In this document: one piece after another, positions 8,611 through 18,139 of the stretch
Layout: every line of letters starts with the position of its first letter
How positions within the stretch are numbered: the first letter of the stretch is position 1
Source: Candidatus Mediterraneibacter stercoripullorum
Lineage (GTDB): Bacteria > Bacillota > Clostridia > Lachnospirales > Lachnospiraceae
Length of the DNA: 64,000 bases
Direction: 5' to 3'
NCBI GenBank assembly: GCA_019115765.1
Contig: DXCZ01000036.1
Span: 1 to 64,000, forward strand
Translations under genes and position numbers: made by a program
The notes under the pieces: model-generated
Database searches by the model: none
Told to the model about the DNA's origin: nothing
What the model saw: the letters and a program-made list of their open reading frames with translations, nothing else

Positions 8611-9131
8611 TCTGGGGTTGGCACAGAGAACGGGCGGGCTTCAGTTTATATTCGTTGTCGAAACGTCTGGACGGGGCGGTCCGTCCGGGTGTATCGGCAC
8701 CAGATGGAAACGCGGCAGACGGCGATTCTCTGTGGAAACCCCAGGGATCAATGAGGGGATTCAAATCAGAAATACTATTATCTAAACGAATAAATGGACC
8801 AAAACATGAACTAGCGCGGCTTGGGGGACTTACCATTTGTAAGACTCCCAGGCCGCGCCTTTGGTTATTTGGGTTTATTACTGAGATAATGCCAAGCTGC
8901 CATCTAAATTTCCGGTGCCGGTCTGCCGGCAAGTCCGGGCTGTGTTGTCACGAAGGCCCGTAGTGGGGCGCCGGCACTTGGGCCGCGTCCTTTGCGGCTC
9001 TACGTGTCCGCTACGCTCCACTCCGAGCGAGAGCGCGGCCGCCGGGGCAATACAGCCCGGACCTGCCAGAAGACTGCCGCAAATATATCGTAAGCCCCTG
9101 ACGGCGTTATCTCTGTTTCAACCCCAGATCA
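8608..9131. repeat. GC-rich palindromic element with terminal inverted repeats (MITE-like), element 1
   Basis: This 524-bp stretch between convergent genes carries no convincing gene. Its ends are a perfect 13-bp inverted repeat, TGATCTGGGGTTG at 8608-8620 and the complement at 9119-9131; imperfect pairing extends to about 27 bp. Both TGA stop codons lie inside these repeats. Within it are a 20-bp stem with a 5-nt loop (8814-8833 with 8839-8858) and a 27-bp imperfect stem (8921-8947 with 9048-9074). It is visibly richer in G+C than its flanks. Possible natures are a non-autonomous transposable element, a structured RNA or a bidirectional terminator. The repeat ends resemble those of element 2 at 38711-39100. 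Confidence 0.7.
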
Positions 9132-10871
9132 GTTCACCGTTCGTTTCACATATGTAGTATGCAGGATATGATGCGCCTTCTCGCTTCCGGGGTGTCCCAG
9201 ATATTCATCATAAAGCTTCTTGATGGACGGATTCTCATGGGACTTCCGTACGCTCTTGGCTGCATCGTTGTCATACAGTGCTTTCGCGCGGATGGCACGT
9301 ACGTCCTCGAAGTTGCGCACGTCGGCGTGAACCTGCGGCTGACCGCCTCCGTTGACGCATCCGCCAGGACAGCACATAATCTCAACGAAATGATAATCTG
9401 CCTCGCCTGCACGGATCTTATCCATGATCGCTCTGGCATTGCTCAGTCCGGAAGCGACTGCAACCTTTACATCCATTCCGGCAACATTATATGTAGCCTC
9501 TTTGATGCCTTCTGTGCCGCGGACTTCAGCAAATTCTACTTTCTCCAGCTCTTTTCCGGTCAGTGTCTCCACTGCTGTACGGAGGGCTGCCTCCATAACT
9601 CCGCCGGTTGCCCCGAAGATAACGCCTGCTCCCGTGGACTCACCGAGAGGATCGTCGAATCCTTCATCCGGCAGAGAACGGAAATTAATGCCTACCTTGC
9701 GGATCAGTCTTGCCAGTTCCCTTGTAGTAAGAGAGATATCCACATCCGGCACTCCCGCTGCATACTGGTCGTCTCTCTGAAGCTCGAACTTCTTCGCTGT
9801 ACAGGGCATGACGCTGACGCACACGATATCTTCCGGAGCGATGCCCATCTTCTCCGCGTAATAAGTCTTTGTAATAGCTCCGAACATCTGCTGCGGTGAC
9901 TTGCAGCTGGACAGATGATCGATCTGATCCGGATAATAATGCTCACAGTACTTCACCCATCCCGGAGAACAGGACGTCATCATCGGAAGGACTCCTCCGT
10001 TCTGCACCCGGTCGATGAACTCATGAGCCTCTTCCATGATCGTCAGGTCAGCTCCGAAGTCTGTATCGAATACTTTATCAAATCCCACTCTTCTCAGAGC
10101 AGCAGCCATCTTGCCTTCCACATCTGTACCCATGGGGTATCCGAACTCTTCACCCAGAGCTGCCCGGACAGAAGGAGCAGTCTGTACCACTACATGCTTT
10201 GTCTCATCTGCAATTGCTTCCAGTACGTCATCCACATTATCCTTCTCATAGAGGGCACCTGTCGGACAGGCAGCGATACACTGGCCGCATCCCACACAGC
10301 TTGTGTCTCCCAGCCCCATATCGAAGGGTGAACCGATAAATGTAGCGAATCCACGGTTGTTCGGTCCGATCACGCCCACAGTCTGTACCTTTTCACAGAC
10401 AGCAGAACATCTCCGGCAGAGGATACATTTATTATTGTCACGGATCATGTGGACAGCACTGTTGTCCAGATCATAGTGAGTCATCTCTCCGGCAAAATAA
10501 TTCTCATCAGCCACTCCCAGTTCCTGACACAGCTCCTGCAGCTCGCAGTGTCCGCTTCTCACACAGGAGAGACATTTCTTATCATGATTGGAAAGAAGAA
10601 GCTGAAGCGTTCTCCGTCTGGAATCCAGCAGCTTCTTTGTATTTGTCTGCACCTCCATGCCCTCGGTGACCGGATAGACGCAGGCAGCTACCAGGCTTTT
10701 CGCCCCTTTTACTTCAACGACACACATCCGGCATGCGCCGATCTCATTGATCTCCTTCAGATAACAGAGCGTGGGGATACGGATCCCTGCCCCATGAGCC
10801 GCTTCCAGGATTGTAGAGCCTGCAGGTGCGGTAACATTCAGGCCATTAATCTTTAAATTAACATATTCCAT
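9129..10871 (-). CDS. hydA: [FeFe]-hydrogenase catalytic subunit, NADH/ferredoxin-linked type
   Basis: This is the 580-residue catalytic subunit of a multimeric cytoplasmic hydrogenase. An N-terminal [2Fe-2S] domain has C36, C47, C50 and C64. A His-Cys3 cluster site (H96, C100, C103, C109) and two [4Fe-4S] sites (C149-C159, C192-C202) follow. The H-cluster domain has TSCSPGW (299), MPCTAK (355) and a third motif with C501 and C505. Last in an operon with hydB and hydC homologues, it fits the group that couples NADH and reduced ferredoxin to H2 production. GGAGG lies 8 bases before the ATG. Bifurcation is inferred from subunit composition. Confidence 0.95.
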   Translation of the reverse strand: MEYVNLKINGLNVTAPAGSTILEAAHGAGIRIPTLCYLKEINEIGACRMCVVEVKGAKSLVAACVYPVTEGMEVQTNTKKLLDSRRRTLQLLLSNHDKKCLSCVRSGHCELQELCQELGVADENYFAGEMTHYDLDNSAVHMIRDNNKCILCRRCSAVCEKVQTVGVIGPNNRGFATFIGSPFDMGLGDTSCVGCGQCIAACPTGALYEKDNVDDVLEAIADETKHVVVQTAPSVRAALGEEFGYPMGTDVEGKMAAALRRVGFDKVFDTDFGADLTIMEEAHEFIDRVQNGGVLPMMTSCSPGWVKYCEHYYPDQIDHLSSCKSPQQMFGAITKTYYAEKMGIAPEDIVCVSVMPCTAKKFELQRDDQYAAGVPDVDISLTTRELARLIRKVGINFRSLPDEGFDDPLGESTGAGVIFGATGGVMEAALRTAVETLTGKELEKVEFAEVRGTEGIKEATYNVAGMDVKVAVASGLSNARAIMDKIRAGEADYHFVEIMCCPGGCVNGGGQPQVHADVRNFEDVRAIRAKALYDNDAAKSVRKSHENPSIKKLYDEYLGHPGSEKAHHILHTTYVKRTVN

Positions 10872-10886
10872 TCTCTCTACCCTCCA

Positions 10887-12674
10887 TTATTCTTTGTAAA
10901 TTGCGCCGAAACGGCATTTTTCCATGCAGGCGCCGCACTTCAGACATTTGTCCGGATTGATCATATGTACTTCCTTCACCTTGCCGATGATCGCATCAGC
11001 AGGGCAGGTCCTTGCACAGAGCGTACATCCCTTACATTTATCCGGATCGATCTTGTACTGCAGCAGAGCCTTACAGACTCCGGCCGGACATTTCTTATCC
11101 ACAATATGAGCAATATATTCATCCCTGAAATAACGCAGGGTTGAGAGCACCGGGTTGGGCGCCGTCTGTCCCAGAGCACAGAGAGAATTCTCCTTCAGGT
11201 GATAGCAGAGTTCTTCCAGCTTATTCAGGTCATCCATGGTCGCCTGCCCTTTCGTGATCTTGTCAAGGATCTCAAGCATACGCCGTGTTCCGATCCGGCA
11301 TGGCGTACATTTTCCACAGGACTCATCTACCGTGAACTCCAGAAAGAACTTTGCGATATCCACCATACAGGTATCTTCATCCATAATGATCAGTCCGCCG
11401 GATCCCATCATGGAACCGATGGCGATCAGGTTGTCATAATCGATGGGGACGTCCAGATGCTCCGCCGGGATACATCCTCCGGACGGGCCTCCGGTCTGGG
11501 CGGCCTTGAACTTCTTGCCGTTTGGCACACCTCCTCCGATCTCCTCAACGATCTCCCGAAGCGTAGTTCCCATTGGGATCTCAACAAGTCCGGTGTTATT
11601 GATCTTGCCGCCGAGAGCAAATACTTTGGTTCCCTTGGACTTCTCCGTCCCCATAGATGCAAACCATTCCGGGCCGTTAACGATGATCTGGGGAATGTTC
11701 GCGTAAGTCTCCACATTGTTCAGAATAGTCGGGCTCTGGAACAGTCCCTTCAGTGCCGGATAAGGCGGGCGGGGTCTCGGCTCTCCTCTGTTTCCTTCGA
11801 TGGACGTCATAAGGGCGGTCTCCTCGCCGCAGACAAAGGCTCCTGCGCCAAGTCTCAGTTCAATATCAAAGTCAAATCCCGAATCAAAGATATTCTTGCC
11901 CAGCAGGCCGTATTCCCTTGCCTGACCAATAGCAATCTCCAGACGCTTTACTGCGATGGGATACTCTGCACGGACATAAATATATCCCTGGGAAGCCCCG
12001 ATGGCGTATCCCGCGATGGCCATGGCCTCCAGCACTGCATGAGGATCTCCTTCCAGAATGGAACGGTCCATAAACGCGCCGGGATCTCCTTCATCTGCAT
12101 TACAGCAGACATATTTCTGATCCGCCTGGTTCTGAGCGGCAAACTTCCATTTCAGACCTGTTGGGAATCCGGCTCCGCCTCTTCCTCTCAGTCCGCTGTC
12201 CAGAAGGATCTGGATCACATCTTCAGGCTTCTTCTCCGTCAGCACAATGCCGAGAGCCTCATATCCTCCTGTACCGATGTATTCGTCAATATTCTCCGGG
12301 TTGATCACACCGCAGTTCCGCAGCGCCACCCTGTGCTGTTTCTTATAGAAATTCGTCTCATTAAGTGGAATGATCTTATCTGTCTTCGTGGTCTCATCGT
12401 AGAGAAGACGGGTAACAACCCTTCCTTTTAACAGATGTTCGGAGACGATCTCCGGGATATCATCCTCCTGCACCATAGAGTAGAATGTGCCCTCCGGATA
12501 AACGATCATGATCGGGCCCAGGGCGCAGAGGCCGAAGCATCCTGTCTTTACAACTCCTACTTCCTCGGTAAGTCCGTTTGCATCAATCTCTTTATGCAGT
12601 CTGTCGATGATCCGCTGGCTGCCCGAGGAGGTACATCCTGTTCCGCCGCAGACAAGTACATGTGAACGATACAT
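10887..12674 (-). CDS. hydB: Hydrogenase NADH-binding flavoprotein subunit (NuoF-like)
   Basis: The subunit is 595 residues from the ATG at 12674, chosen because AGGAGG lies 10 bases upstream; the in-frame TTG three codons earlier is too close. An N-terminal thioredoxin-like [2Fe-2S] domain (Cys near residues 9, 14, 46, 50) is followed by the NuoF core binding FMN and NAD(H) (GRGGAGFP motif). The [4Fe-4S] site SCGKCTPCR comes next. Two C-terminal ferredoxin motifs (CKGCTLCARTCP and CLKCGACMEKC) end the protein. It accepts electrons from NADH and is thought to host flavin-based bifurcation in HydABC complexes. It lies 15 bp upstream of hydA. Confidence 0.95.
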   Translation of the reverse strand: MYRSHVLVCGGTGCTSSGSQRIIDRLHKEIDANGLTEEVGVVKTGCFGLCALGPIMIVYPEGTFYSMVQEDDIPEIVSEHLLKGRVVTRLLYDETTKTDKIIPLNETNFYKKQHRVALRNCGVINPENIDEYIGTGGYEALGIVLTEKKPEDVIQILLDSGLRGRGGAGFPTGLKWKFAAQNQADQKYVCCNADEGDPGAFMDRSILEGDPHAVLEAMAIAGYAIGASQGYIYVRAEYPIAVKRLEIAIGQAREYGLLGKNIFDSGFDFDIELRLGAGAFVCGEETALMTSIEGNRGEPRPRPPYPALKGLFQSPTILNNVETYANIPQIIVNGPEWFASMGTEKSKGTKVFALGGKINNTGLVEIPMGTTLREIVEEIGGGVPNGKKFKAAQTGGPSGGCIPAEHLDVPIDYDNLIAIGSMMGSGGLIIMDEDTCMVDIAKFFLEFTVDESCGKCTPCRIGTRRMLEILDKITKGQATMDDLNKLEELCYHLKENSLCALGQTAPNPVLSTLRYFRDEYIAHIVDKKCPAGVCKALLQYKIDPDKCKGCTLCARTCPADAIIGKVKEVHMINPDKCLKCGACMEKCRFGAIYKE

Positions 12675-12693
12675 AGCTTTCAAGCCTCCTTTT

Positions 12694-13077
12694 CTATTCT
12701 GCCTTATTCTGTGCCGCGCTTAATGTATATTTAGCGACCACCTGGCCTCCCAGCAGATGAATGCGCAGCACTTCCATCGCCTTTTCCGGAGTCATCTTCA
12801 CGTAAGTCACCTTTTCCTTTCCAGGCTCCAGCACCTCTACGATAGGTTCATACTGACACAGCCCGATACATCCGGTCTGGGTCACGTTGATCTTATCCGT
12901 CAGGTTCTGCTCCTGAACCGCATCTGAAAGTGCGGTGAGGACAGGCCTTGCGCCGCTGGCGATCCCGCAGGTTGCCATTCCGACCACCACGCGGATCTGA
13001 TTCTCATTTTCTGCGCGCACGCCGACCTTTCCCTGCATCTTTGCTCTGATCGCACGTAATTCTTCCAGTGATTTCAT
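12694..13077 (-). CDS. Thioredoxin-like [2Fe-2S] ferredoxin of the hydrogenase operon
   Basis: The protein is 127 residues from the ATG at 13077, preceded by GGAGG with 7-base spacing; an upstream in-frame start lacks this. The fold pattern matches the NuoE/HydB N-terminal ferredoxin family. Only three cysteines are visible (ATCGIA, TGCIGLC), where four normally bind [2Fe-2S], so cluster binding needs another ligand or is impaired. Its place between the ATPase-like gene and hydB suggests an accessory electron-transfer or structural subunit of the hydrogenase. Confidence 0.85.
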   Translation of the reverse strand: MKSLEELRAIRAKMQGKVGVRAENENQIRVVVGMATCGIASGARPVLTALSDAVQEQNLTDKINVTQTGCIGLCQYEPIVEVLEPGKEKVTYVKMTPEKAMEVLRIHLLGGQVVAKYTLSAAQNKAE

Positions 13078-13160
13078 ATATAACCTCCATTTCTGTCTCA
13101 AATAACATCAGTTCCTCCGCAGCAGCCCGGATACATAAGATTCTTTCTGCTGCTCTGCGT

Positions 13161-13721
13161 TCAGATATCTGCGCCCCCGTCTGTCTCCTTCCTGTTCGTT
13201 TCCAGATATTCTTTAATAAAAGTGGACACCTCCGGCTCTGAGAATGAAATACCATCGCCCAGCATCTCTCTCATATCCCTGGTATCCAGAACAAAACTTC
13301 TTTCCCCGTACCTATATGTATATCTGAAATCGATGTGTTCGTTGAACACGATCAGAGTGTAGACTGTAGAGCTGATATCTCCAAGCGGCATCCTGTCAAT
13401 GTGCGACAGTCCGAATACCGCTGTGACCAAGGTCCCCCTGCCCTTTTCCGAATCAATCTGGAAACTGCCGTCCGTACTCTCCGCCGCCTGCTTGAAAAAC
13501 GGAACGCCAAGTCCCACTTTCCTCGTTGTCCGCGTGGTGAAAAACGGGTCCTGTACCTTCTCCACCTCTTCCGGAGTCATCCCGCATCCGTTGTCCCTGA
13601 TCGTGACAGTCAGGCAGTCTTCCTCAGGCTGCACGGAAACCGTGATCTCGATCAGTGTGGCACCTGCGCGCACAGAATTCTCCGCAATATCCAGAATATT
13701 CAGAGCAATTTCCGGCATCAT
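13161..13721 (-). CDS. HATPase-domain protein (histidine-kinase-like ATPase) in hydrogenase operon
   Basis: This 186-residue soluble protein has a GHKL-type ATP-binding fold: N-box (LDIAENSVRA), G1 box (DNGCGM), a GLGVPF G2-like motif and a final GRGTLV element. There is no His phospho-acceptor, sensor or membrane region, so it is an isolated ATPase domain like anti-sigma kinases. It starts 4 bp after the hydC stop, so the two are translationally coupled. ATPase genes in this operon position are a recurring feature of clostridial hyd operons. Its role (regulation, or folding/assembly) is unknown; a link to the divergent signalling cluster is inference. Confidence 0.85.
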   Translation of the reverse strand: MMPEIALNILDIAENSVRAGATLIEITVSVQPEEDCLTVTIRDNGCGMTPEEVEKVQDPFFTTRTTRKVGLGVPFFKQAAESTDGSFQIDSEKGRGTLVTAVFGLSHIDRMPLGDISSTVYTLIVFNEHIDFRYTYRYGERSFVLDTRDMREMLGDGISFSEPEVSTFIKEYLETNRKETDGGADI

Positions 13722-13725
13722 GGGC

Positions 13726-14220
13726 CTACTCGTATTTGGCCAGGATACCGTCGATATCGTCCACGGTCAGGCGGCCGTAAACCTCATCGTTGACCATCAT
13801 GACAGGAGCCAGTCCACAGGCTCCCACACAGCGGCACGCATCCAGAGAGAATTTCCCGTCAGGCGTACACTCGCCGCCGACGATGCCCAGCTTCTCCATC
13901 AGAGCATTGTAGATATCTCCCGATCCCTTTACATAGCATGCTGTGCCAAGACAGACAGAAATCCGGTATTTTCCCTTCGGATTCAGCGTAAACTGTGAAT
14001 AAAATGTCACAACGCCGTAGATCTTTTCCATGGGGATACCGGTTTCGTCTGAGATGATCTTCTGGACTTCTATGGGAAGATATCCATATATATCCTGTGC
14101 CTTCTGCAAGATCGGCATAAGGGCACCTTTTTCATCCTTGAGCTCATTAATAACTTTCAGCAGTGCCTCTTCCTGTTCTTTTGTTCCCGAGAACGGGACT
14201 TTTGATTTCTTTTCAGCCAT
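13726..14220 (-). CDS. hydC: Hydrogenase NuoE-like subunit
   Basis: The 164-residue protein matches the 24-kDa NuoE family. A helical N-terminal part is followed by a thioredoxin-like [2Fe-2S] domain. Its ligands lie in CLGTACY and in the CRCVGACG region. In HydABC complexes this subunit relays electrons between the flavoprotein and other clusters. It is first in the operon, with GGAGG 7 bases before the ATG. A 219-bp divergent region separates it from the plus-strand signalling cluster. Confidence 0.92.
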   Translation of the reverse strand: MAEKKSKVPFSGTKEQEEALLKVINELKDEKGALMPILQKAQDIYGYLPIEVQKIISDETGIPMEKIYGVVTFYSQFTLNPKGKYRISVCLGTACYVKGSGDIYNALMEKLGIVGGECTPDGKFSLDACRCVGACGLAPVMMVNDEVYGRLTVDDIDGILAKYE

Positions 14221-14354
14221 TCTTCAACCTCCATTTCTTGTATTTTAACGCTCATTGCTTACATGATATCACAGGAAAGATCAAAATTCCACTTGTTTGT
14301 CGTTATTTTTTTGTCTAGTTTTACCATCCTATTCTGTGCATCATTCTACCTTCA

Positions 14355-14383
14355 TTGCTTTTTGCACATTCTGATGCTATACT
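14355..14383 (+). promoter_or_regulatory. Promoter of the DRTGG/sensory hydrogenase cluster
   Basis: TTGCTT (14355-14360) and TATACT (14378-14383) are spaced 17 bp, with TG one base before the -10. The start codon is about 57 bp downstream. The opposite-strand promoter for hydC was not identified with confidence. Confidence 0.6.
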
Positions 14384-14439
14384 GGAAGAAACTTTTTGTA
14401 CCTAATAGTATATAAATTCTTTTATTTTCAGGAGGTCAT

Positions 14440-14784
14440 ATGACGATCAGAGAAATGCAGGAGGTCCTGGACGCCAGCTTTTTATATGGTGAAGAGCTGG
14501 CGGACCTGGACGTACAGTTTGTCTTTTCAGCCGACATGATGAGTGACGTTCTCGCTTACGGCGGCAAATGTTCCGTTCTCATCACGGGACTCTGCAATCC
14601 ACAGGTGGTCCGCACAGCCGAGATGCTTGATATCGTCTGTATTATTTTTGTTCGTGGGAAGATGCCGGACGAGAATATGCTGGCGCTGGCCGTGGGAAAG
14701 GGGATGGCGGTACTTGCCACCGACCACTATATGTTCACCACATGCGGCATGCTCTATGAACATGGACTTCGGGGAGGTGCTTGA
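14440..14784 (+). CDS. DRTGG-domain protein, first gene of hydrogenase-linked cluster
   Basis: This 114-residue soluble protein is a stand-alone DRTGG-type domain, a fold found fused to phosphotransacetylase and inorganic pyrophosphatases, where related parts bind nucleotides. A run typical of the domain (VLITGLCNPQVVRTAEML) lies at about residues 46-63. AGGAGG precedes the ATG. It starts a five-gene operon: DRTGG, ATPase, sensory hydrogenase, DRTGG, PHP. A ligand-binding signalling role is inferred from context; no catalytic residues are evident. Confidence 0.8.
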   Translation: MTIREMQEVLDASFLYGEELADLDVQFVFSADMMSDVLAYGGKCSVLITGLCNPQVVRTAEMLDIVCIIFVRGKMPDENMLALAVGKGMAVLATDHYMFTTCGMLYEHGLRGGA

Positions 14785-14790
14785 TGACAG

Positions 14791-15213
14791 ATGAGTGAAA
14801 CTCTGACATTTAATTATACGATAGACGGAGATGACTTTACCCGTGCCGGTGAGGCAAGCAGCTCTGTGAAGAACAAGCTGAAGCAGCTGGGACTGGACAG
14901 TGATGTAATCCGCAAAGTTGCCATTGCCATGTATGAAGGCGAGATCAATATGGTCATCCACGCGGACGGAGGCGCTATAACCGTCACCGTATCCGATACC
15001 GATATCACCATGGTCCTTGCAGACCACGGTCCCGGCATTCCGGACGTGGAAAAGGCCATGCAGGAAGGGTATTCCACTGCCAGGCCGGAAGTCCGTTCCC
15101 TTGGATTCGGAGCCGGGATGGGGCTGCCCAACATGAAGAAATATACGGACGAGATGCACATCGCCACTGTCATCGGCCAGGGAACAACAATCACAATGAA
15201 AGTACATATCTGA
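14791..15213 (+). CDS. RsbW-like anti-sigma/serine kinase-type ATPase
   Basis: The 140-residue protein is an isolated HATPase domain of the anti-sigma-factor class: N-box around AMYEGEINMVIHA, G1 box DHGPGIPD, G2 region GFGAGMGLPNMKK and a final GQGTTI. Such proteins bind partners or phosphorylate Ser/Thr of antagonists. Here the neighbours are redox and DRTGG proteins, not sigma factors. It begins 6 bp after the DRTGG gene. I infer that it relays the state of the neighbouring H-cluster protein; the partner is unknown. Confidence 0.85.
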   Translation: MSETLTFNYTIDGDDFTRAGEASSSVKNKLKQLGLDSDVIRKVAIAMYEGEINMVIHADGGAITVTVSDTDITMVLADHGPGIPDVEKAMQEGYSTARPEVRSLGFGAGMGLPNMKKYTDEMHIATVIGQGTTITMKVHI

Positions 15214-15231
15214 GGAGGTGACGCCTGATCC

Positions 15232-16683
15232 ATGAACACGTATAAATTCATGCGCTCCGTACGGCTGCGGGAATCGGCCTGCCAGGGATGCATCAACTGC
15301 ATCAAATACTGCCCCACTCAGGCCATCCGTGTGCACAACGGAAAGGCACACATCATCGACAAGTTCTGTATCGACTGCGGCAGATGCATCCGGTACTGCC
15401 CGCATCATGCCAAGATTGCTGTCTATGATCCCCTTTCCGTTATCAATAATTTCAAATACACCGTAGCGCTTCCTGCCCCTTCTCTCTACGCTCAGTACAA
15501 TAATCTGAACAATGTTGACATTGTGCTGAACGCACTGCTGAAGCTGGGATTTGACGACGTATATGAAGTAAGTGCCGCCGCAGAGCTTGTATCTGAGGCT
15601 TCCAGAGAATACATTAAGGAACATGCGGATGAAGCTCCATTTATCAGCTCCGCCTGTCCCTCTGTGATCCGGCTGATCCGGGTGAAATTCCCCTCTCTAA
15701 TCTCCAGGCTGCTGCCCATCAAGGCGCCTGTAGAAGTGGCCGCTGAGATCGCGCGGGCGCGTGCCATGCAGAAAACCGGGCTGAAACCGGAGGAGATCGG
15801 GATCATCTTCATCTCCCCCTGCCCGTCCAAGGTCTCCTATGCCAAGGCTCCTCTGGGCATTGAGAAGAGCAACATTGACAATGTGGTCGCCATCAAAGAC
15901 GTGTATCCTCTTCTCCTGCCCCATATGAAGCACGACGAGAGCCAGCTGAAACCCATCTCCTGTTCCGGCAGGATCGGCATCGGCTGGAGCAATGCAGGCG
16001 GCGAGGTCGGAGGACTGCTTATAGATAATTATCTGGCAGCTGACGGGATCGTCAATATCCTCCGCGTACTGGAAGAGTTGGAGGATGAGAAGCTGCATGG
16101 TCTGACCTTTGTGGAACTGAGCGCCTGCAACGGAGGATGCGTAGGCGGTACTCTCACTGTTGAAAATGCCTATATCGCCACGACCAAAACGAAACGTCTG
16201 GTGAAATACCAGCCCGTATCCAGGAATCACCTGTCGGACAATCCGGAACTGAAAAATATTTACTGGGCGGACAATGTAGAATACGAACCTGTCTTCCGTC
16301 TGGGCAATACATTTAAGGAAAGCCTGCAGATGATGGGAACCGTAGAAGAACTGACCGCCAGATTTCCGGGACTGGACTGCGGCTCCTGCGGCGCGCCCAC
16401 CTGCCAGACGCTGGCCGAGGATATCGTCCGGGGCGATGCCACTCCAAATGACTGCATCTATGTGCTTCGTTCCAACATCGCAGATCTGTCAAACAAGATC
16501 GGCCACCTGGCCGGAGACGGCGGTACGGATCAGGAATTGTCCGATGATGACAGACATCTGCTCCATCAGTATATCTGCGAACTGACTTCGGAACTGGCCT
16601 CCTTCGGAGTGCCGGAAATCCAGCGGAGTCACGAGCGGGGACAGGATCCGAAACTGGATCCGCTGAAACGTCCCTCTCATTAG
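15232..16683 (+). CDS. Putative sensory [FeFe]-hydrogenase with extra Fe-S domains
   Basis: Domains of this 483-residue protein: two [4Fe-4S] motifs (C17-C27, C46-C56), an H-cluster domain, then a four-Cys Fe-S domain (C383, C386, C391, C408) and a helical tail. The H-cluster cysteines are kept at C142, C197, C299 and C303. The motifs diverge from catalytic enzymes: SACPS instead of TSCxPxW, SPCPSK instead of MPCxxK, and a third motif ending GGT rather than GGGQP. An Ala before the first Cys-Pro matches reports that sensory HydS proteins replace the proton-relay Cys. No PAS domain is present, so output probably goes through the adjacent ATPase. Sensory function is inference. Confidence 0.85.
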   Translation: MNTYKFMRSVRLRESACQGCINCIKYCPTQAIRVHNGKAHIIDKFCIDCGRCIRYCPHHAKIAVYDPLSVINNFKYTVALPAPSLYAQYNNLNNVDIVLNALLKLGFDDVYEVSAAAELVSEASREYIKEHADEAPFISSACPSVIRLIRVKFPSLISRLLPIKAPVEVAAEIARARAMQKTGLKPEEIGIIFISPCPSKVSYAKAPLGIEKSNIDNVVAIKDVYPLLLPHMKHDESQLKPISCSGRIGIGWSNAGGEVGGLLIDNYLAADGIVNILRVLEELEDEKLHGLTFVELSACNGGCVGGTLTVENAYIATTKTKRLVKYQPVSRNHLSDNPELKNIYWADNVEYEPVFRLGNTFKESLQMMGTVEELTARFPGLDCGSCGAPTCQTLAEDIVRGDATPNDCIYVLRSNIADLSNKIGHLAGDGGTDQELSDDDRHLLHQYICELTSELASFGVPEIQRSHERGQDPKLDPLKRPSH

Positions 16684-16713
16684 GAACTCACAACAGAAAG
16701 GATTGACTGAATA

Positions 16714-17046
16714 ATGAAATTGAAAGACATTTATGAACTGCCGAACTGCAGATTTCTTGTCAAAGGAGATCCGGAGCGGGATATCTCTCGTATCTTCTGC
16801 TGTGATCTTCTCAGCATTGCCATGAGTAAAGCCCCTTCCGACGGCATCTGGGTAACTGTAATGGGGAATAAAAATACTCTTGCCGTAGCTTCTCTGACTG
16901 ATACTGCCTGCATTGTCCTGGCGGAGGGAGTCTCCCTGGACGACGGCACACTGGCTAAGGCGGAAGAGGAAGGCATTGCCGTTGCGGAGACGGAGCTTCC
17001 GGTATTTGACATGGCTCTTGAGATCCACACGGCAGGAAATCTATGA
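16714..17046 (+). CDS. Second DRTGG-domain protein of the cluster
   Basis: The 110-residue protein shows the DRTGG-like pattern (ISRIFCCDLLSIAM; later VMGNKNTLAVAS), related to but distinct from the first copy at 14440. A ribosome site, GAAAGGA, lies upstream. Its stop overlaps the PHP start (ATGA), indicating translational coupling. Two DRTGG proteins bracketing the ATPase and hydrogenase suggest ligand-sensing partners. That is inference. Confidence 0.8.
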   Translation: MKLKDIYELPNCRFLVKGDPERDISRIFCCDLLSIAMSKAPSDGIWVTVMGNKNTLAVASLTDTACIVLAEGVSLDDGTLAKAEEEGIAVAETELPVFDMALEIHTAGNL

Positions 17047-17771
17047 GTCCCCTCTTTTATGACCTGCATATCCATTCCTGCCTCTCCCCATGCGGGGATG
17101 ACGATATGACGCCGGCCAACATCGCGGGGATGGCTGCGGTAAAAGGGCTGGATGTGATCGCTCTCACAGACCACAACAGCTGCCGGAACTGCCCTGCCGC
17201 CATGTATCACGGTATCCAATACGGGGTCACTGTGATCCCCGGCATGGAGCTGACTACTCAGGAAGAGGTTCATGTAATCTGTCTCTTTCCGGATCTGGAG
17301 AACGCCCTGGCTTTTGATGACCTGGTATACGAGAAACTGATGCCGGTCCGGAACCGGGAAGACATCTTCGGGAAACAGCAGATCATGAACGAGAAGGATG
17401 AAGTGATCGGAACTGTGGAAAATCTGCTGATCAACGCTACATCCATCGGATTCGATGAGGTATTTTCCCTTGTCGGCTCCTTCCACGGAATAGCTTATCC
17501 GGCTCATGTGGACAAGTCCTCAACCAGCATCCTCTCCAACCTGGGTTTCGTTCCCCCGGAGAGCGCCTTTACCTGCGCAGAGTTTCACGATTTCAGGAAT
17601 CTGCACCGGATCCGGAAGGAACACCCCTATTTTGAAAAATGTAATGTGGTCTGCTGCTCCGACGCCCACTATCTGGAAGATATACATGAGCCGGAGTATC
17701 AGATCTGGACTAAGGGGCGGGATATTCCGGATATACTTGACGCATTGAAGAATGGCTGTTTTGTTCACTAG
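17043..17771 (+). CDS. PHP-domain metal-dependent phosphoesterase
   Basis: The 242-residue protein carries the PHP metal-site motifs in order: DLHIHSCLSP (7-16), ALTDHNS, PGMELTT, PAHVD and CSDAH. Family members hydrolyse phosphoesters such as histidinol phosphate, DNA ends or nucleotides in the cytoplasm; the substrate here is unknown. Being last in a sensory operon, it could degrade a small-molecule signal or phospho-ligand of the DRTGG proteins. Its C-terminal codons overlap a broken DUF2975 frame. Confidence 0.85.
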   Translation: MSPLFYDLHIHSCLSPCGDDDMTPANIAGMAAVKGLDVIALTDHNSCRNCPAAMYHGIQYGVTVIPGMELTTQEEVHVICLFPDLENALAFDDLVYEKLMPVRNREDIFGKQQIMNEKDEVIGTVENLLINATSIGFDEVFSLVGSFHGIAYPAHVDKSSTSILSNLGFVPPESAFTCAEFHDFRNLHRIRKEHPYFEKCNVVCCSDAHYLEDIHEPEYQIWTKGRDIPDILDALKNGCFVH

Positions 17772-18139
17772 CGTTTTCTCAGAAAGCATCCGGATCATTG
17801 CCGTTTTCCTTCTGATCAGTTCGGTTTTATTTCCAAGGCTTTCCGGCTTTGATACGAATTTTGAGATCTTCAGCTACGGTGGTTTTACATTGATCGACGG
17901 TAATTTTCTGGTGAGGGGAGTACTGCTTTTCATTTTCAGCATCATCCTTCATGAAGGATTTTCCATGCAGAAAGATCTCACTCAACGAGCTGTCGGCCAG
18001 AGTCGGGATATCAACTGTCAATCTGTCCAATTTAAAGACCGGGAAAGTAAAAGCAGTCCGCTTCTCCACACTGGACGCCATCTGCGATGTCCTGGACTGC
18101 CAGCCCGGAGATATCCTGGAATACCAGAGAAAAGAATAA
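17752..18139 (+). pseudogene. Collapsed DUF2975 membrane protein / XRE regulator pair
   Basis: Two broken frames overlap. One (from about 17763) encodes the C-terminal half of a DUF2975-type membrane protein: two hydrophobic helices around IIAVFLLISSVLF and GVLLFIFSIIL, with a FEIFSYGGFTL link. The second (from 17951) encodes most of a small YozG-like XRE regulator: ISLNELSARVGISTVNLSNL and the CQPGDILEY tail. Normally these are two intact adjacent genes. Here the DUF2975 N-terminus is missing. The XRE N-terminus is also missing and is joined out of frame near 17965-17975, consistent with an internal deletion. Confidence 0.7.

What the first reader, a model, noticed from the sequence alone, without database searches (positions are those of the whole stretch)
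14440..17771. Candidate H2/redox signalling module: DRTGG, RsbW-like ATPase, sensory-type [FeFe]-hydrogenase, DRTGG, PHP
Five tightly packed plus-strand genes face the hydrogenase operon. The central protein keeps all four H-cluster cysteines but has sensory-type motif changes and no PAS domain. A stand-alone anti-sigma-like ATPase and two small DRTGG proteins, plus a PHP phosphoesterase, could replace the PAS output. Group C sensory hydrogenases are known; this five-protein organisation, with ligand-domain proteins and a phosphoesterase, is to my knowledge not functionally described.
Basis: partly seen in the sequence, partly recalled or inferred. Interest (0 to 1): 0.8.

Follow-up and report, generated by a model that had tools for sequence, protein, structure and literature searches.

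The report
Hydrogen-sensor module controlling a hydrogenase
Many Clostridia carry the same set of five small genes built around a slow, sensor-type hydrogenase, together with two extra genes in the neighbouring hydrogen-making operon; this looks like a dedicated control unit for hydrogen metabolism whose workings appear unstudied.

Summary
D1 (DRTGG), W (SpoIIAB-like ATPase), S (PAS-less [FeFe] hydrogenase), D2 (DRTGG) and P (PHP phosphoesterase) stand in uninterrupted order in 146 of 161 loci holding S; of the 15 others, 5 are cut by contig ends and 4 have two of the genes fused. S is not group C: it fits published group D (M2e, HydS), already proposed as an H2 sensor near a kinase-like ATPase and a bifurcating hydrogenase; how it signals is an open question there. 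New here: (1) D1 tracks S over 391 genomes (phi 0.96). (2) K and T, two genes inside the hydrogenase operon, go with S: both are in 112 of 112 S-positive loci showing E, F and A, against K 0 and T 1 of 15 uncut operons of S-negative genomes. (3) Natural fusions D1-W, W-S, S-D2, P-K. (4) No other neighbour family exceeds 15 of 161 loci. Best reading: a dedicated H2/redox control unit acting, through K and T, on the E-K-T-F-A type hydrogenase, probably post-translationally by kinase/phosphatase switching of DRTGG proteins. That chemistry is inferred, not shown.

The parts
14440..14784 (+). D1, stand-alone DRTGG-domain protein (114 aa)
   Evidence: Pfam DRTGG 30.8 bits, cut-off 25.2; AF2 model pLDDT 87.7 matches DRTGG structure 2ioj, E 5.4e-7; D-x-M-S-D and TGLxN conserved at 95% or more in 156 aligned D1 proteins
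14791..15213 (+). W, SpoIIAB/RsbW-like GHKL ATPase (140 aa)
   Evidence: HATPase_c_2 E 2.2e-12; aligns over residues 30-140 with anti-sigma F factor 1til, E 8.6e-10; E49, N53 and the glycine boxes invariant in 28 aligned
15232..16683 (+). S, PAS-less group D (M2e) sensory-type [FeFe] hydrogenase (483 aa)
15655..15657 (+). codon of C142, first H-cluster ligand of S; Ala141 before it fills the proton-transfer Cys slot
   Evidence: C142 in 161 of 161, Ala at 141 in 145 of 161
16378..16455 (+). C-terminal Cx2Cx4Cx16C [4Fe-4S] motif of S (C383-C408)
   Evidence: four Cys each in 159 of 161; Pfam FeS E 1.5e-12
16714..17046 (+). D2, second DRTGG-type protein (110 aa)
   Evidence: window copy below the Pfam cut-off; 9 of 11 scanned hit DRTGG; D1 and D2 separate in a tree with support 0.999
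17043..17771 (+). P, PHP phosphoesterase (242 aa)
   Evidence: Pfam PHP E 2.1e-8; AF2 pLDDT 96.5, closest PHP enzymes EndoQ, 3o0f, TM0559, RNase AM; H9, H11, D43, H44, E69, H77, H155, D207, H209 invariant in 36 aligned
13161..13721 (-). K, second HATPase, inside the hydrogenase operon; co-occurs with the module
   Evidence: HATPase_c E 2.5e-17; phi with S 0.89 over 391 genomes; within-family test; P-K fusion in L203
12694..13101 (-). T, small thioredoxin-like ferredoxin with three conserved Cys (C45, C78, C82)
   Evidence: 2Fe-2S_thioredx 25.2 bits, cut-off 24.8; alignment A9; phi with S 0.80 at E <= 1e-40 over 128 genomes; in 1 of 15 uncut operons of S-negative genomes
13726..14220 (-). E, NuoE-like subunit of the hydrogenase
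   Evidence: 2Fe-2S_thioredx E 5.3e-52
10887..12683 (-). F, NuoF-like subunit of the hydrogenase
   Evidence: ORF of 598 aa, named from its sequence and place; not scanned against Pfam; its relatives were found by profile
9129..10871 (-). A, HydA, NADH-dependent [FeFe] hydrogenase group A6
   Evidence: NF040763 928.9 bits, cut-off 765
14221..14439 (.). divergent intergenic region between the two operons
   Evidence: read; no sigma-70-type or Rex-like match in it

Best explanation
D1-W-S-D2-P plus K and T form one dedicated H2/redox control unit for the E-K-T-F-A type of electron-bifurcating hydrogenase. S, a hydrogenase with three accessory [4Fe-4S] cluster motifs and no usual proton path, reads H2 or redox state. 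Its C-terminal cluster domain passes the state to a complex holding the SpoIIAB-like ATPase W and the two DRTGG proteins D1 and D2. W (kinase) and P (phosphoesterase) set opposite states of a shared target, most likely D1/D2 or K. K and the three-cysteine ferredoxin T, encoded between the hydrogenase subunits, carry the output to the hydrogenase itself. Shown by sequence: gene content, order, co-occurrence of K and T with the module, fusions, kept catalytic residues, no other widely conserved neighbour. Inferred: H2 as the signal, phosphorylation as the chemistry, and post-translational output.
For: Order D1-W-S-D2-P intact in 146 of 161 loci and 59 of 61 in the first set. S and D1 co-occur 180/4/4/203 (both/S only/D1 only/neither), S and K 178/6/16/191, S and HydA-A6 171/13/154/53. 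Inside 22 families that hold both S+ and S- genomes with A6: K in 89 of 92 S+ and 14 of 78 S-, stratified p 2.8e-16. Of 161 loci, 112 show E, F and A; all 112 also hold K and T. 17 operons of S-negative genomes, 2 of them cut: K in none, T in one. Fusions D1-W (two genomes of one family, one a single-contig genome), W-S, S-D2, P-K. P is followed directly by K in 12 loci; in L089, L096 and L097 with no T, and no F or A above 300 bits, in view. S keeps 8 N-terminal, 4 H-cluster and 4 C-terminal Cys, each in at least 159 of 161. W keeps the E-x3-N box and glycine boxes; P keeps the His/Asp/Glu set. No other neighbour family exceeds 15 of 161 loci. Published: TamHydS has low activity, and a structural change under H2 is reported (passages).
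Against: No experiment on D1, W, D2, P, K or T was found in the papers searched. K is found without S in 16 of 391 genomes, some of them single-contig (G042, G136, G201), so K and T can exist without the sensor. In 26 of 161 loci no hydrogenase gene is in view, 17 of these with at least 6 kb on both sides of S, so the target may be elsewhere in those genomes. D1-W occurs once without S (L179), so the pair may have another job. PHP enzymes closest in structure act on nucleic acids or nucleotides (names of entries), not phosphoproteins. The near-invariant Ser of D1 lies where the solved DRTGG protein AF1212 also has a Ser nearby (alignment), so it is no proof of a phospho-site. The W-S, S-D2 and P-K fusions are single cases.
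Confidence: 0.5

Rival explanations
1. Transcriptional output: W is a true anti-sigma factor; S and D1/D2 decide whether W holds or frees an unlinked sigma factor that drives the hyd operon.
For: The only solved relatives of W found by sequence are anti-sigma F factors (4 of 4 hits at E <= 0.001); the two operons are divergent in the window and in at least 52 of 161 loci.
Against: Far below the anti-sigma equivalog cut-offs; no sigma or STAS family among the commonest neighbours (response regulators in 9 of 161); in 39 of 161 loci the ten genes D1-W-S-D2-P-E-K-T-F-A run on one strand, where a divergent promoter is absent; it gives K and T no role.
Confidence: 0.2
2. Nucleotide-messenger variant: P makes or destroys a small nucleotide signal which D1/D2 bind; W and K are nucleotide-gated; S sets P or W activity.
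For: P's closest solved relatives include nucleases and a nucleotide phosphoesterase; DRTGG occurs beside AMP/Ap4A-binding CBS domains in a pyrophosphatase (fold match 3l2b).
Against: In that pyrophosphatase the nucleotide sits, as I recall, in the CBS and not the DRTGG domain; no nucleotide-making family was seen among the commonest neighbours.
Confidence: 0.2
3. Assembly or repair module: the ATPases and DRTGG proteins help mature or protect the E-K-T-F-A hydrogenase, and S is a scaffold or donor.
For: K and T are co-encoded with the hydrogenase (112 of 112); GHKL ATPases include chaperones (recalled).
Against: 154 of 325 A6-positive genomes lack S, so A6 enzymes as such do not need it; S keeps all 16 cysteines in at least 159 of 161 each; published TamHydS turns over H2 (passages).
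Confidence: 0.1

Closest known systems
Group D (M2e) putative sensory [FeFe] hydrogenase, TamHydS of Thermoanaerobacter mathranii (PMC8163306, PMC10407848, PMC13104023, PMC6984386; passages read)
   Same: [quoted passage not shown] Window E258 and E295 have the spacing of TamHydS E252 and E289.
   Different: The passages I saw mention neither DRTGG nor PHP genes, nor a link to K and T. The window has Ser at the M497 slot where TamHydS has Leu.
Group C HydS/HfsB with PAS domain and an adjacent serine phosphatase (T. saccharolyticum hfsBC, PMC5707799, PMC11837493; passages read)
   Same: Sensor-type hydrogenase paired with phosphorylation-type proteins; the window's own genome has one too (L178: PAS E 2.7e-6, then SpoIIE E 5.2e-16).
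   Different: PAS fused to the sensor and a PP2C-type phosphatase; here no PAS, a PHP enzyme, two DRTGG proteins and a SpoIIAB-like ATPase.
SpoIIAA-SpoIIAB / RsbV-RsbW partner switching (recalled)
   Same: Small partner gene directly before, and often overlapping, the ATPase gene (D1-W median gap -4 in 61 loci); ATPase of the same fold with E and N of the N-box kept.
   Different: DRTGG protein instead of STAS, no linked sigma factor, PHP instead of PP2C phosphatase.
Regulatory [NiFe] hydrogenase HoxBC with HoxJ kinase and HoxA (as summarised in PMC5707799 and PMC8163306, passages)
   Same: Hydrogenase used as H2 receptor feeding a kinase.
   Different: Different enzyme class, PAS-type histidine kinase and a response regulator; a response regulator is near S in only 9 of 161 loci.

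Membership tests
Group D / M2e [FeFe] hydrogenase | Two N-terminal [4Fe-4S] motifs and four H-cluster Cys | tested here: met
   12 Cys present in the window, each in at least 160 of 161
Group D / M2e [FeFe] hydrogenase | Proton-transfer Cys (C299 CpI) absent | tested here: met
   Ala141 in the window; Ala in 145 of 161, Cys in none of the counted letters
Group D / M2e [FeFe] hydrogenase | C-terminal Cx2Cx4Cx16C and no PAS domain | tested here: met
   C383, C386, C391, C408; no PAS in Pfam scan
Group D / M2e [FeFe] hydrogenase | Proton-pathway glutamates E252 and E289 of TamHydS | tested here: met
   E258 and E295, same spacing of 37, kept in 156 and 160 of 161; mapped by spacing, TamHydS itself was not aligned
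Group D / M2e [FeFe] hydrogenase | M353 to Ser and M497 to Leu as in TamHydS | tested here: inconclusive
   Ser at the M353 slot (S 110, T 50, A 1 of 161); Ser at the M497 slot, where the family varies (N 89, L 32, Q 10, S 9 and others of 161)
Group D / M2e [FeFe] hydrogenase | Groups with a named M2e protein apart from group C | tested here: met
   With L147 (L. phytofermentans; Cphy_3798 is listed D M2e in PMC3561251) in a 52-row clade, support 99/99; the group C protein of the same genome lies outside. L147 is another strain of that species and was not compared with Cphy_3798 itself.
Group D / M2e [FeFe] hydrogenase | Low activity and response to H2 | not testable with these tools
   needs protein
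Group C sensory [FeFe] hydrogenase | C-terminal PAS domain | tested here: not met
   contrast L178 with PAS
Anti-sigma factor SpoIIAB/RsbW | Equivalog score | tested here: not met
   59.2 bits against 135 for spIIAB; 19.5 against 145 for RsbW
Anti-sigma factor SpoIIAB/RsbW | GHKL fold with E-x3-N box | tested here: met
   role of E and N recalled
Anti-sigma factor SpoIIAB/RsbW | Linked STAS and sigma genes | tested here: not met
   none among the 40 commonest neighbour families printed, 10 of them Pfam-scanned; genes under 70 aa were not looked at
DRTGG domain | Pfam PF07085 above cut-off (D1) | tested here: met
   30.8 against 25.2 bits; fold match 2ioj
DRTGG domain (D2) | Pfam PF07085 above cut-off | tested here: not met
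   18.9 against 25.2 bits for the window copy; other members reach 1.9e-9, 9 of 11 at E <= 0.01
PHP phosphoesterase | PHP fold and metal-binding His/Asp/Glu set | tested here: met
   role of the residues recalled
Partner-switching signalling | Kinase phosphorylates a partner that a phosphatase restores | not testable with these tools
   needs biochemistry

The most novel reading that the evidence does not exclude
A new signalling principle: partner switching in which paired DRTGG proteins take the place of STAS proteins, a PHP enzyme takes the place of the PP2C phosphatase, and a nearly silent hydrogenase is the receptor. Its output is the bifurcating hydrogenase enzyme itself, reached through an ATPase (K) and a three-cysteine ferredoxin (T) built into that operon, so that group A6 hydrogenases exist as an unregulated E-F-A form and an H2-governed E-K-T-F-A form.
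Probability: 0.3. Interest if true: 0.85.

Novelty: new variant of a known kind. Interest (0 to 1): 0.66.

Why it matters
Group D hydrogenases have been studied as isolated proteins, and the paper that proposed TamHydS as a sensor says its lack of a PAS domain raises the question of how the signal is passed on (PMC8163306, passages). This work names a concrete, highly conserved set of partners (D1, W, D2, P, K, T) and likely contacts (fusions), which makes the question testable with purified proteins and gene removals. If right, it would explain how H2 back-pressure could govern a hydrogen-making enzyme in gut, rumen and biofuel Clostridia. It also suggests that K and T are control parts rather than ordinary parts of the enzyme.

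Tried and rejected
Rex-like operator: searched with up to 2 mismatches; 4 hits in the window, none in the divergent region, 6 of 100 shuffles reach 4. Sigma-70-type scan of 14150-14500: none found, 0.9 expected. Two terminator-like matches at 14171-14199 lie inside the coding start of E and are not taken as real. No terminator-like site in 17650-18000, after P.

A dedicated output gene: all-against-all blastp clustering of 1180 other ORFs (70 aa or more) within 8 kb of S in 161 loci; the largest family is in 15 loci. Only the 40 commonest families were printed; representatives of 10 of them were Pfam-scanned: ABC transporter (15 loci), response regulator (9), polysaccharide deacetylase (9), RF3 (8), SPOR (8), MatE (7), short-chain dehydrogenase (7), TM1266-like 'iron-only hydrogenase system regulator, putative' (6), sirohaem synthase type (6), deaminase (6). 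None is general. Shorter genes and families too diverged for blastp at 1e-8 would be missed. The small HTH gene at 17951-18139 (62 aa) is below that size limit, so its conservation was not tested.

K as an ordinary hydrogenase-operon gene: rejected, since it does not follow HydA. Worry that K was merely too divergent in S-negative genomes: 17 of the 154 A6-positive S-negative genomes were fetched and scanned at E 10; one hit of 13 bits outside the operon, none inside. Two of the 17 (L227, L235) are cut at a contig end; one (L231, G040) is one of the two weak-S genomes that I counted as S-negative.

Exceptions checked: of 4 genomes with strong D1 but no S, G132 and G334 end at or just after W; G196 is a D1-W pair without S; G355 was not examined. 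All 6 S-positive genomes without K were looked at: in five S lies on a contig under 11 kb, one of these (G215) with a cut K at its edge; in G341 no hydrogenase gene is seen in the 14 kb fetched. The 15 loci without uninterrupted order: 5 cut by contig ends (L130, L146, L158, L167, L177), 4 with fused genes (L188, L189, L200, L202), 6 with genes missing, turned or not found (L072, L087, L108, L118, L150, L157). L200 also shows no P.

A first within-family test had 19 families; on re-reading the tables I had missed three mixed families, and one search gives the corrected 22.

Complexes could not be predicted (single chains only). The natural D1-W fusions come from loci outside the list allowed for structure prediction, so I did not hand them in.

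Limits: the 391 genomes are one even draw from the class; genome handles, and the family of each genome in the within-family test, were typed by hand from the tables. The threshold for A6 is E <= 1e-150 (325 of 391); 293 pass the curated cut-off. D1 'strong' was split by eye: the weak ones are 6.4e-20 or worse, the strong ones 1.7e-32 or better. S is counted without G040 and G283, whose hits (7e-44, 3.4e-41) stand far below the next (2.4e-81). The hydrogenase tree used the first 440 residues.

Papers: passages or listings only, none read whole. PMC4248817 is not held, so the R. albus HydS work is known only through other papers.


Full report
What is there. D1 is a DRTGG-domain protein, W a SpoIIAB-like GHKL ATPase, S an [FeFe] hydrogenase-like protein with a C-terminal Fe-S motif and no PAS, D2 a weaker DRTGG protein, P a PHP phosphoesterase. 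They diverge from a hydrogenase operon that in transcription order reads E (NuoE-like), K (a second HATPase), T (small thioredoxin-like ferredoxin), F (NuoF-like), A (HydA, group A6 by NCBIfam, 928.9 bits against a cut-off of 765).

What S is. The genome also holds a group C sensor with PAS and a SpoIIE-type phosphatase gene beside it (L178). In a 60-row maximum-likelihood tree S falls in a 52-row clade (99/99) with the Lachnoclostridium phytofermentans protein, while six group C-type proteins form another clade (96/99). PMC3561251 Table 6 (passages) lists Cphy_3798 as D M2e. S keeps eight N-terminal, four H-cluster and four C-terminal cysteines, each in at least 159 of 161 aligned. It has Ala at the proton-transfer Cys slot (145 of 161), and glutamates with the spacing of TamHydS E252/E289 in 156 and 160 of 161 (TamHydS residues from passages). 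So S is group D/M2e, published as putatively sensory, PAS-less, of low activity, and encoded upstream of a bifurcating hydrogenase (passages). [quoted passage not shown]

Conservation of the set. S is found at E <= 1e-40 in 186 of 391 genomes of the class. In 61 loci (the window plus 60 of those genomes, mostly chosen for long contigs) 59 have D1-W-S-D2-P in order (D1 and D2 were called by one merged profile there). In 161 loci (those 61, the best 80 named contigs, and 20 from the wider phylum) 146 have the uninterrupted order; each gene as its own ORF: D1 156, W 159, D2 154, P 153. The 15 others: 5 cut by contig ends, 4 with fused genes, 6 with genes missing, turned or not found (named under Tried and rejected). 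Median gaps in the 61 set are -4, 17, 2 and -4 bases (longest-ORF starts, so indicative). Published gene numbers agree with the order: Cthe_0335 with Cthe_0340-0342 and Cphy_3798 with Cphy_3803-3805, and Tmath_0862 with Tmath_0865-0869 (PMC3608648, passages), leave exactly the gene slots that this order needs. That is inference from numbering.

K and T co-occur with the module. Over the same 391 genomes S and D1 give 180 both, 4 S only, 4 D1 only, 203 neither (phi 0.96). S and K: 178, 6, 16, 191 (phi 0.89). S and HydA-A6: 171, 13, 154, 53 (phi 0.25) (S counted without two weak hits). To reduce the effect of shared ancestry I compared S+ and S- genomes inside 22 families, all with A6: K in 89 of 92 S+ and 14 of 78 S-, stratified p 2.8e-16. 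Among the 161 S loci, 112 show E, F and A, and all 112 also hold K and T. In 17 A6 operons fetched from S-negative genomes (17 of 154, picked from the listed places), K is in none and T in one; 15 are uncut and 14 of these read E-F-A. T over 128 genomes: 59, 6, 7, 56 at E <= 1e-40 (phi 0.80) and 62, 3, 16, 47 at 1e-20 (phi 0.72); part of the T hits lie inside longer frames of about 580-760 aa, likely flavin subunits. T keeps three cysteines; position 50, five after C45, is Gly in all 13 aligned.

Physical links. Open frames with no internal stop join D1-W in L188 and L189 (two genomes of one family, the second a single-contig genome), W-S in L200, S-D2 in L202 and P-K in L203. The last three are single cases and could be assembly errors; D1-W, seen twice, is less likely to be. 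P is followed directly by K in 12 loci. L207, from the window's own family, shows no D1, W, S or P in its 18 kb but a D2, and beside its A-F-T-K-E operon lie a PAS-bearing group C sensor and a SpoIIE-type phosphatase gene. That is one case, but it suggests that K may serve either sensor type.

Against. K is present without S in 16 of 391 genomes, some of them single-contig (G042, G136, G201). In 26 of 161 loci no hydrogenase gene is in view, 17 of these with 6 kb or more on both sides of S. One genome, G196, has D1-W without S, with a diverged W (121 bits). Nothing here shows phosphorylation, H2 sensing or contact with the hydrogenase.

Fold evidence. D1 models at pLDDT 87.7 and matches DRTGG proteins 2ioj and 3l2b and, weakly, HPr kinase/phosphatases. 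The conserved D32-x-M34-S35-D36 run lies in the poorly predicted stretch (residues 31-40 mean 54, 35-37 under 50), which could mean a partner- or ligand-dependent loop. P models at 96.5 and is nearest to EndoQ, the putative phosphoesterase 3o0f/3e0f, TM0559 and RNase AM. W aligns with SpoIIAB over residues 30-140.

How it most likely works. S reports H2/redox state through its C-terminal cluster to W and the DRTGG pair. W and P push a shared target in opposite directions. K and T bring the result to the hydrogenase. The order D1-W, with small overlap, mirrors spoIIAA-spoIIAB (recalled), so D1 may stand where a STAS protein stands. I put 0.5 on the unit acting on the hydrogenase in broadly this way and 0.3 on DRTGG partner switching as such.

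Novelty. Known: group D enzyme, its nearness to a kinase-like ATPase and a bifurcating hydrogenase, its proposed sensory role. Not found in print: DRTGG and PHP partners, the co-occurrence of K and T with the sensor, the two architectures of the A6 operon, the fusions. 'DRTGG' with 'hydrogenase' gave one paper, where the two words are unrelated; other searches are. The library holds open-access papers only and supplements were not read, so a subscription paper or a supplementary table could describe the cluster.

Noticed in passing
L219-L235: S-negative genomes carry a bare E-F-A group A6 hydrogenase operon: of 15 uncut, K in none and T in one, against K and T in 112 of 112 S-positive loci with E, F and A.
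   Followed up: yes
window 12694-13101: T keeps only three conserved cysteines (C45, C78, C82); position 50 is Gly in all 13 aligned. That a fourth Cys is usual in this fold is recalled.
   Followed up: partly
L178 6723-9610: The same genome has a group C PAS-type sensor hydrogenase followed directly by a SpoIIE-type phosphatase gene.
   Followed up: partly
L207 17-10303: A relative without D1, W, S and P in view has a PAS-type group C sensor and a SpoIIE-type phosphatase beside its A-F-T-K-E operon, and a lone D2.
   Followed up: partly
L179 3458-6921: Isolated D1-W pair without S, beside a valyl-tRNA synthetase gene.
   Followed up: no
L153 14614-14868: A TM1266-like 'iron-only hydrogenase system regulator, putative' (Pfam E 1.4e-30) lies within 8 kb of S in 6 of 161 loci.
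   Followed up: no
window 17951-18139: Small HTH_26 (Cro/C1-type) gene downstream of P; conservation not tested.
   Followed up: no
L149: Contig labelled Anaerolineaceae (Chloroflexota) holds a module whose S groups among Bacillota: mislabelled bin or transfer.
   Followed up: no
L205, L206, L208: In three genomes of one genus without S, the E-K-T-F-A operon is preceded by a 676-aa gene, in L205 a dCache chemoreceptor-type protein.
   Followed up: partly
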